Below, one piece after another: positions 984 to 34,278 of a stretch of DNA of 64,000 bases; the first letter of the stretch is position 1, and each line of letters starts with the position of its first letter. A model generated the notes under the pieces. The model searched no databases. It worked only from the letters and a program-made list of their open reading frames with translations, and had not been told where the DNA came from. This DNA is from Gammaproteobacteria bacterium (GTDB taxonomy: Bacteria > Pseudomonadota > Gammaproteobacteria > Xanthomonadales > Wenzhouxiangellaceae). The position numbers and the translations under genes are program-made. Location: positions 1 to 64,000 of the forward strand of contig JAHJQV010000062.1 of assembly GCA_018819105.1 (NCBI GenBank). Reading direction: 5' to 3'.

Positions 984-1754
984 TCAATCGCGGCGGTCAA
1001 ACGGCTGCCGCAGCAAGCCAGCGATGCTCTGCTCGCTGCCACCCTGCACACCGATGCGCATGCCCATCTGACGTGCAAAATCGCTGCGGGTTCGAAACAG
1101 GCGATCCCAGCAGCTGAAGATGGTGCCGTAGTTGGAGTCGGTGTGCGCGCGGATGGCATGATGATGCACCCAGTGAATGGCTGGCGTGACGATCACCCAG
1201 GACAGCACCTGCTCCAGCCGTGGCGGCAGCCTGACATTGGAATGATGAAACCCGGCCGCCAGCAGCACCAGCGTTTCGAACACCAGCACCGAAGCCAGCG
1301 GCAGCCCCAGCAGCATGATCACTGCAGCCCGCGCGCAGGCCGACAGCAGTACCTCGCCAACATGAAACCGCAGCGCCGAAGTAACATCGAGAAACTCGTC
1401 CTCATGGTGGACGCGATGGAAACGCCACAACAGCGCCAGCTTGTGATTGGCCACGTGCCAGCCGAATATGGCCAGATCCAGCAGCACGATGTCCAGCAAC
1501 AGCCCGGCAGCACCCTGCCACCATTGCGGTCGCCACTGGCTGGCATGTCCGGCTGCCAGCGCGGTCAGCGGCAACACGATCAGCACCGAGGCAGCGACAT
1601 TGATCAGCCACAGGCCAAGGTTGTTGCGCAGGCGGCGCCGACGCTGCCACGACTGTGCCGGCCATTGATCGGCCGCGTGCAGGCGCTCCAGCACAAACAG
1701 CAGCAGCAATAGCGCAGCGGCCACCAGCGCCTTGTACTGCACCAGCGTCTCCAT
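984..1754 (-). CDS. Fatty acid hydroxylase / sterol desaturase superfamily membrane protein
   Basis: A 256-residue membrane protein with the histidine clusters of the di-iron hydroxylase superfamily: HVANH, HRVHH, HHSN and HWVHHH, spread from about residue 100 to 205. These ligate two irons used for O2-dependent hydroxylation or desaturation of lipids. About four or five hydrophobic segments flank the clusters, including one at the N-terminus. The ATG at 1754 overlaps the TGA of the upstream gene (TGATG), and a GTG one codon earlier is also possible. Tight coupling to the transporter-like and dioxygenase genes suggests one transcript. The substrate is unknown. Confidence 0.85.
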   Translation of the reverse strand: METLVQYKALVAAALLLLLFVLERLHAADQWPAQSWQRRRRLRNNLGLWLINVAASVLIVLPLTALAAGHASQWRPQWWQGAAGLLLDIVLLDLAIFGWHVANHKLALLWRFHRVHHEDEFLDVTSALRFHVGEVLLSACARAAVIMLLGLPLASVLVFETLVLLAAGFHHSNVRLPPRLEQVLSWVIVTPAIHWVHHHAIRAHTDSNYGTIFSCWDRLFRTRSDFARQMGMRIGVQGGSEQSIAGLLRQPFDRRD

Positions 1755-33334: not shown

Positions 33335-33362
33335 CAAAAAAAGACCCGGCAAAAGCCGGGTC
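33335..33362 (-). terminator. Rho-independent terminator of the putative Rsm/Csr RNA
   Basis: On the minus strand GACCCGGC-TTTT-GCCGGGTC forms an 8-bp stem followed at once by TTTTTTT. This is the clearest intrinsic terminator in the window. It points leftward, and the nearest protein gene ahead of it is 150 bp away, so it most likely ends a small RNA. Confidence 0.9.
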
Positions 33363-33510
33363 AGATCTTGAGCTTCCATGCTCTCACAGAACGTCCCTGT
33401 CCTGTCGCGGGCTTCCCTGCCCGTCACCCTGTTCATCTGTCAGTCGCTGAGCGACCTGATCGACAAAATATCACCAGGCAACTTTTGTGGTCCTCGTCCC
33501 TGATCCGAAT
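33335..33510 (-). ncRNA. Putative CsrA/RsmA-sequestering small RNA (RsmY/RsmZ/CsrB type)
   Basis: Read on the minus strand, three adjacent hairpins present GGA in their loops: GGGC-AGGGAA-GCCC (33409-33422), ACAGGAC-AGGGAC-GTTCTGT (33386-33405) and GAGC-ATGGAA-GCTC (33370-33383). A perfect terminator follows at 33335. A fourth possible GGA hairpin lies at 33489-33506 (AGGGAC in the loop). GGA in a hairpin loop is the CsrA/RsmA recognition element, and tandem copies plus a terminator define the decoy RNAs of this class. I saw no GacA-type upstream box (TGTAAG-N6-CTTACA), so the 5' end is a guess. No gene fits this stretch. Confidence 0.6.
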
Positions 33511-33513
33511 TGC

Positions 33514-33849
33514 TCAGTGATAAGCTCTGATCAGGTTTTTATCACTGCCTGCATCGCTTTCTCGTACCGTCCGCAGGTTTCCGGTTCCATCTTCAGCAGC
33601 ATGTTCTTGCTGAGATACTGCCTGGCCAGAGATGGCGGCTGGATAGATTTCGCTGATCACACCTGAGCCAGCGATGGCGCCCGACAGCACCGCGCCACCA
33701 CAGCTTTCGCAGTGGTGAATGCACCATTCCCTTGGCGCATCCTGACGCTGGTTGTTGGTCACAAAACTGGATACCAGCATCATTCCTGGCTCATCAATAC
33801 CGCAGTGATGACAATGATCCAGATGCAAATCCCTGTTGCGCTTCAGCAT
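33514..33849 (-). pseudogene. Degenerate DUF4145-like zinc-ribbon fragment
   Basis: The ATG at 33849 has a strong ribosome site (AGGGAG, six bases ahead). The 111 codons hold two C-x2-C pairs (HCHHCG and CESCGG) and then SEIYPAA, as in the N-terminal zinc-ribbon part of DUF4145 proteins. After EIYPA the frame turns into low-similarity codons. In another frame the DNA reads LARQYLSKNM and CGRYEKAMQAVIK up to a stop at 33531, which looks like the continuation of the same family. I therefore think it is a frameshifted remnant. A functional small zinc protein cannot be excluded. Confidence 0.45.
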
Positions 33850-34278
33850 GTACTTCTCCCTAAAGGTGTTTTGCCAGTTGCCTGCAGCCATACCGCCCCA
33901 GACATCAATCTTCCCTGATTTCCGGTAACTGAAAGTGATCATCGTGCCACCACCAGTCACCGCCTTGCATGCAAGCATGTCCAATGACCTGTTCAAGCTG
34001 CTTGCGATGAGAATGACACACATAAGTGATGATTCTCTCACCCGAATGTGAACAAGTTTTGCGGAAGCTGAGAGAAATGCGAATATAAAGATTATAAACT
34101 ATTATAATCAATAACTTATAATTGATTAAGTTTATCTAATACTTGAGTATTAGAGGGCCTGAAATGGGGCATAACCCGGTTTAGCGAGGCAGGAAGACGG
34201 CCTTGATTGTCACAGATGTGAAGAACACATGGGAACCATGTTGCCCGCCACCGCAGCGGTGACAGGCAGCATAAATGG
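33850..34278. other. AT-rich intergenic stretch with palindrome
   Basis: No gene is supported. Around 34080-34140 the DNA is very AT-rich, with several TATAAT-like hexamers, and CTAATACT-TG-AGTATTAG (34136-34153) is an inverted repeat with 8-bp arms. It could be an operator or promoter region for the reading frame at 33849, or a relic of transferred DNA. Confidence 0.4.

What the first reader, a model, noticed from the sequence alone, without database searches (positions are those of the whole stretch)
33335..33510. Candidate RsmY/RsmZ/CsrB-type small RNA
Three consecutive hairpins expose A-x-G-G-A or G-G-G-A in their loops and are followed by a perfect intrinsic terminator on the minus strand. 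A fourth similar hairpin may lie further 5'. This is the architecture of decoy RNAs that sequester CsrA/RsmA. Its place next to a threonine/serine exporter is not one I know.
Basis: partly seen in the sequence, partly recalled or inferred. Interest (0 to 1): 0.7.

Follow-up and report, generated by a model that had tools for sequence, protein, structure and literature searches.

The report
Orphan CsrA-decoy-like small RNA
Between two bacterial genes lies what looks like a small RNA that mops up the regulator protein CsrA; it is very unlikely to be chance, no close relative of it was found, and in this same genome assembly the gene for CsrA itself is cut in two by a jumping element.

Summary
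On the minus strand, 33423-33370 forms three consecutive hairpins. Each has a six-base loop ANGGAN (AGGGAA, AGGGAC, AUGGAA) directly on a C-G closing pair, the form reported as the high-affinity Csr/Rsm site. A perfect terminator follows (33362-33343, then seven T). No such triplet appeared in 1,331 shuffles of the window or in other DNA scanned. All three GGA loops are predicted open.

The best reading is a decoy (sponge) RNA for CsrA/RsmA of roughly 120-125 nt. It works like RsmY/RsmZ/CsrB but cannot be filed as a member: no Rfam family reaches its cut-off (best RsmY, 24.3 bits against 57), and no GacA box lies at the locus. No homologue was found in the same-genus genome or in 399 genomes of the order. 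Nearest in spirit is RsmU of Xanthomonas, another orphan decoy.

The genome encodes a GacA/UvrY homologue and one csrA. That csrA is interrupted after codon 6 by an IS3-like element with a 3-bp target duplication, so the decoy's presumed target is probably absent in this strain. Transcription and CsrA binding are inferred. A 3'-UTR-derived form remains possible.

The parts
33413..33418 (-). CsrA-type hexaloop 1, AGGGAA, on a 5-bp stem (hairpin 33423-33408), C-G closing pair
33393..33398 (-). CsrA-type hexaloop 2, AGGGAC, on a 7-bp stem (hairpin 33405-33386), C-G closing pair
33374..33379 (-). CsrA-type hexaloop 3, ATGGAA, on a 4-bp stem (hairpin 33383-33370), C-G closing pair
33336..33362 (-). 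Intrinsic terminator: 8-bp stem GACCCGGC/GCCGGGTC, loop TTTT, then T7
33336..33458 (-). Proposed sRNA gene, about 123 nt; the 5' end is inferred from an extended -10-like TGATATTTT (33473-33465) without a good -35
   Evidence: weak promoter evidence; fold
33515..33547 (-). Perfect 9-bp inverted repeat CAGTGATAA-15 nt-TTATCACTG, centred about 72 bp upstream of the inferred start; possible operator, function untested
   Evidence: I4
33514..33963 (-). Doubtful ORF upstream (Cys-rich, no detectable relatives, GC3 0.55 against 0.73-0.79 in neighbouring genes); possible host mRNA if the sRNA is 3'-UTR-derived
33727..33732 (-). Further ANGGAN hexaloop (AGGGAA) on a 10-bp stem, inside the doubtful ORF
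33911..33916 (-). Further ANGGAN hexaloop (AGGGAA) on a 4-bp stem, inside the doubtful ORF
34082..34111 (-). Promoter-like TTGATT-18-TATATT in an AT-rich stretch; could drive a roughly 740-nt transcript ending at the same terminator
   Evidence: one site found, 1.0 expected by chance

Best explanation
It is a small-RNA gene on the minus strand (33336 to about 33458). Its product presents three tandem high-affinity CsrA/RsmA binding hairpins and ends at an intrinsic terminator. When made, it would bind CsrA dimers on its loops and so remove CsrA from the ribosome-binding sites of target mRNAs, as RsmY/RsmZ/CsrB do. Shown here: the hairpins, loop type, closing pairs, predicted accessibility, terminator, non-randomness, a GacA/UvrY homologue, and a single csrA that is split by an IS3-like element. 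Inferred: that the RNA is transcribed, where it starts, that it binds CsrA, and that sequestration is its role. Because csrA is interrupted after codon 6 in this assembly, the decoy is probably now without its usual target in this strain.
For: Three ANGGAN hexaloops directly on stems, all with C-G closing pairs; PMC4005645 defines the high-affinity CsrA/RsmE site as a hexaloop ANGGAX directly on top of a stem. No triplet in about 85 Mb of shuffled window. GGA loops predicted open at 0.93-1.0. Perfect directional terminator. Best of 4,227 Rfam families for this element is RsmY, full length, 24.3 bits, E 0.0018 for the 1.4-kb stretch. GacA/UvrY homologue, 46% identical over nearly full length. 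csrA stood at its usual place after alaS until the IS insertion.
Against: No transcript data. Below the gathering score of every Rfam family. No homologue by DNA in 100 relatives including the same genus, none convincing by covariance model in 40 relatives, and no structured match by loop pattern in 399 genomes of the order. No GacA box at the locus and none with at most one mismatch in the genome. Only three sites, fewer than CsrB/CsrC. csrA is broken in this assembly.
Confidence: 0.62

Rival explanations
1. The same hairpins act as a CsrA decoy, but the RNA is cut from (or remains part of) the 3' UTR of a longer mRNA that starts near 34075 and carries the small Cys-rich ORF, as RsmU is made from the comEA 3' UTR in Xanthomonas.
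For: No good promoter lies immediately upstream of the hairpins, while an AT-rich promoter-like stretch lies before the ORF. Two more ANGGAN hexaloop hairpins lie in that stretch (33732, 33916); with the rate elsewhere on this strand the chance of two or more is about 0.001. RsmU is a precedent in the literature (PMC7694677).
Against: The ORF has no relatives and atypical codon composition, so it may not be a gene. In the 740-nt fold the third hairpin is mostly lost.
Confidence: 0.2
2. A decaying relic: a once functional decoy in a remodelled intergenic stretch, now without function because csrA is IS-interrupted.
For: csrA is split by an IS with a 3-bp duplication; the neighbouring ORF looks degenerate; the DNA beside thrE differs in the sister species.
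Against: The hairpins, loops and terminator are intact, with no sign of decay. The IS insertion looks recent (identical IS ends on six contigs, rest of csrA open).
Confidence: 0.12
3. A chance cluster of GGA hairpins at an ordinary terminator.
For: No conservation and no homologue.
Against: Zero triplets in 1,331 window shuffles and none elsewhere in the other loci scanned; all three loops have the optimal C-G closing pair.
Confidence: 0.06

Closest known systems
RsmY (Rfam RF00195, Pseudomonas)
   Same: Similar length (121 model positions against about 123 nt proposed), GGA hairpins followed by a GC-rich terminator; best Rfam match over its full length.
   Different: 24.3 bits against a gathering score of 57; no GacA box; no sequence family shared.
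RsmZ / PrrB (RF00166), CsrB and CsrC
   Same: Multiple GGA hairpins exposed for CsrA. CsrB and CsrC carry 12 and 9 GGA hairpins by a loose count in 369 and 246 nt.
   Different: Three sites only, in 123 nt, but all three of the strict ANGGAN hexaloop type, which the same strict count does not find in CsrB or CsrC. The RsmZ model gives no match in the genome at E up to 10.
RsmU (Xanthomonas, PMC7694677)
   Same: An orphan RsmA decoy that matches no Rfam family and is restricted to a narrow lineage; 3-4 GGA motifs.
   Different: RsmU is processed from the 3' UTR of comEA mRNA; here the neighbours are thrE and an amidohydrolase gene. Sequence relation was not tested.

Membership tests
CsrA/RsmA-sequestering sRNAs (functional class) | Several GGA motifs exposed in hairpin loops, ANGGA preferred | tested here: met
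   Three ANGGAN hexaloops, open in folding
CsrA/RsmA-sequestering sRNAs (functional class) | Stand-alone non-coding transcript with intrinsic terminator | tested here: inconclusive
   Terminator met; promoter weak; transcription not testable here
CsrA/RsmA-sequestering sRNAs (functional class) | Binds CsrA and relieves repression | not testable with these tools
   Needs gel shift, pull-down or reporter
CsrA/RsmA-sequestering sRNAs (functional class) | A functional CsrA in the same cell (context, not a feature of the RNA itself) | tested here: not met
   The only csrA found is interrupted by an IS after codon 6 in this assembly; a second copy in the unassembled 1-2%, or a mixed population, is not excluded
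RsmY (RF00195) | Score at or above the gathering score | tested here: not met
   24.3 against 57 bits; not found in a whole-genome search
RsmZ/PrrB (RF00166) | Score at or above the gathering score | tested here: not met
   No match in the genome at E up to 10
CsrB and the other Rfam decoy families | Score at or above the gathering score | tested here: not met
   Scan of all 4,227 families over the window
Gac-controlled Rsm sRNAs | Upstream TGTAAGN6CTTACA box | tested here: not met
   None near the gene at up to 3 mismatches except a chance-level site at 34103-34120; none at up to 1 mismatch in the genome
Gac-controlled Rsm sRNAs | GacA/UvrY in the genome | tested here: met
   46% identity to E. 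coli UvrY over 211 residues; GacS/BarA not tested
RsmU (Xanthomonas) | Sequence homology and derivation from comEA 3' UTR | not tested
   The RsmU sequence was not at hand; the genomic neighbours differ

The most novel reading that the evidence does not exclude
A lineage-specific CsrA decoy built wholly from optimal hexaloop sites, carried in a short stretch of atypical DNA, in a strain that has lost csrA to an IS element: either a decoy that has outlived its target, or one that now serves another RNA-binding protein. It would be a Csr-type decoy in a family where I found no described one.
Probability: 0.2. Interest if true: 0.6.

Novelty: new member of a known kind. Interest (0 to 1): 0.42.

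Why it matters
Decoy RNAs of CsrA are hard to find by sequence because they drift fast. This one shows that a strict structural signature (three ANGGAN hexaloops on C-G closed stems before a terminator) can pick one out of a genome with almost no background. The broken csrA in the same genome gives a natural case for asking what happens to a decoy and its regulon when the target is lost. Neither point overturns existing understanding.

Tried and rejected
DNA search of 100 relatives: only short terminator-like matches and one 30-nt match upstream. Single-sequence covariance model R1 in 40 relatives: the hits are ordinary terminators or tRNA loci when inspected. Generic three-hairpin model R2, built from invented stems, in 40 relatives: one possible analogue (G053), the rest not convincing; its first look scores only about 100 candidates per genome, and it did not detect E. 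coli csrB (cut at its 5' end in the stretch searched), so a negative is weak. Loop pattern in 399 genomes: two other matches, one a palindromic repeat and one without hairpins. Loop pattern in viral contigs: none. GacA-box route to a canonical Rsm RNA in this genome and in relatives: the boxes found lead to other genes or to a different sRNA-like element without ANGGAN hexaloops. Upstream ORF as a phage, plasmid or Pfam gene: nothing significant; its best plasmid match gave no recognisable related protein. thrE neighbourhood in the sister species: no sRNA, different gene.

Full report
WHAT IS THERE. The minus strand at 33423-33370 reads as three hairpins in a row, CGGGC-AGGGAA-GCCCG, ACAGGAC-AGGGAC-GTTCTGT and GAGC-ATGGAA-GCTC. 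Seven unpaired bases follow, then an 8-bp terminator stem GACCCGGC-TTTT-GCCGGGTC and T7 ending at 33336. The GGA triplets lie 20 and 19 nt apart. All three loops are exactly six bases of the form ANGGAN, and all three are closed by a C-G pair.

IS IT CHANCE. I counted hairpins with an ANGGAN hexaloop on at least four pairs. The window has one triplet within 60 nt. 1,331 dinucleotide-preserving shuffles of the window (about 85 Mb) have none, 20,000 shuffles of the 176-nt segment never reach three, and 0.67 Mb of other loci hold no triplet except re-fetched copies of this one. The folding energy is 3.6 sd (176 nt) and 3.1 sd (109 nt) below shuffles. The GGA bases are unpaired with probability 0.93-1.0 in folds from 109 to 225 nt. 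In a 740-nt fold the first two loops stay open but the third hairpin is mostly lost.

WHY A CsrA DECOY. Duss et al. (PMC4005645) determined structures and affinities for RsmE with RsmZ sites and concluded that the high-affinity site is a hexaloop ANGGAX directly on top of a stem, with stacking on a C-G closing pair; omission of N, extra loop bases or a missing stem lowers affinity 10- to 1000-fold. All three sites here are of the best class. RsmY is the best Rfam match to this element over the 1.4-kb stretch (24.3 bits, E 0.0018, aligned end to end), but far below its gathering score of 57. The whole window has no decoy family above cut-off, and RsmY and RsmZ models find nothing in the whole genome.

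PARTNERS IN THE GENOME. A GacA/UvrY homologue is present (46% identity over 211 residues); GacS/BarA was not tested. One CsrA match exists. That locus begins a contig and lacks the normal N-terminus. I fetched both ends of all 68 contigs. The other half lies at the start of contig C18, directly after the alaS end (my reading of the upstream frame): ATGCTTATATTAACCAGA followed by the IS end TAAAGTGGACCCC. Contig C30 starts with the other IS end GGGGTCCACTTTA followed by AGACGAGTTGGTGAAAAG. AGA is present on both sides, a 3-bp target duplication. The element looks like an IS3-family member (its first ORF begins MSETKRRKSYPPAFKAKIGLEALKG; the family call is my reading). It is multicopy, and six left ends are identical over about 140 bp, so the insertion is probably recent. 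In the assembly csrA is therefore cut after codon 6, with a stop at once. A second copy in unassembled DNA, or a mixed population, cannot be excluded.

CONSERVATION. The same-genus genome G001 has thrE at 88% identity but different DNA after it, without the RNA. DNA search of 100 relatives, a single-sequence covariance model, a generic three-hairpin model and a loop pattern over 399 genomes of the order give no convincing homologue. The models have limited reach: R2 did not detect E. coli csrB, cut at its 5' end in the stretch searched. So no covariation test was possible. Such RNAs evolve fast (general knowledge), and RsmU of Xanthomonas is a published case of an RsmA decoy restricted to one genus and outside all Rfam families (PMC7694677).

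HOW IT IS MADE. No TGTAAGN6CTTACA box lies near it and none with at most one mismatch in the genome. The only local promoter hint is an extended -10-like TGATATTTT at 33473-33465 with no good -35; it would give an RNA of about 123 nt. A perfect 9-bp inverted repeat sits about 72 bp further up. Alternatively a promoter-like AT-rich stretch near 34100 (chance level) would give a 740-nt transcript through a doubtful Cys-rich ORF (GC3 0.55 against 0.73-0.79, no relatives). Two further ANGGAN hairpins lie in that stretch (33732, 33916), more than expected (chance about 0.001, a calculation made after seeing them). That would be the RsmU route, a decoy from a 3' UTR.

VERDICT. Membership in RsmY/RsmZ/CsrB is not supported. 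The strongest new facts are the purity of the three binding sites, the lack of any relative, and the IS-interrupted csrA. I suspect Xanthomonadales from genome sizes and repeats, but did not test it.

Noticed in passing
G000:C18:1-160 and G000:C30:1-300 (L176, L188, L036): The only csrA found in the genome is interrupted after codon 6 by a multicopy IS3-like element with a 3-bp AGA target duplication; its 5' part follows alaS.
   Followed up: yes
G000:C16 near 127238 (L150, minus strand); L094, L097; possibly L098, L100: A conserved TGTARGAAATTTCYTACA-type box, in some genomes doubled and resembling the UvrY site of csrB, stands before an apparent small RNA with a terminator, next to an oxidoreductase-like gene in several genera. 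In three genomes the RNA shares a CCTGAGCTGGT...TTTGGGGAAT core. No Rfam match in L094, L097, L098 or L100 (L150 not scanned).
   Followed up: partly
L126 about 1495-1580 (G053, same order): Apparently intergenic stretch with four ANGGA motifs in about 50 nt followed by a strong terminator: a possible independent CsrA-decoy candidate.
   Followed up: partly
L138 about 1480-1620, minus strand (G059): A long palindromic element that encloses two CAGGGATG hexaloop hairpins, i.e. CsrA-type loops inside a repeat-like structure.
   Followed up: no
window 33514-33963 (-): Small Cys-rich ORF with a CxxC...CxxC pattern, low GC3 and no detectable relatives; may be a degenerate or foreign gene.
   Followed up: partly
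window 33515-33547: Perfect 9-bp inverted repeat CAGTGATAA/TTATCACTG with a 15-nt spacer upstream of the sRNA; possible regulator site.
   Followed up: no
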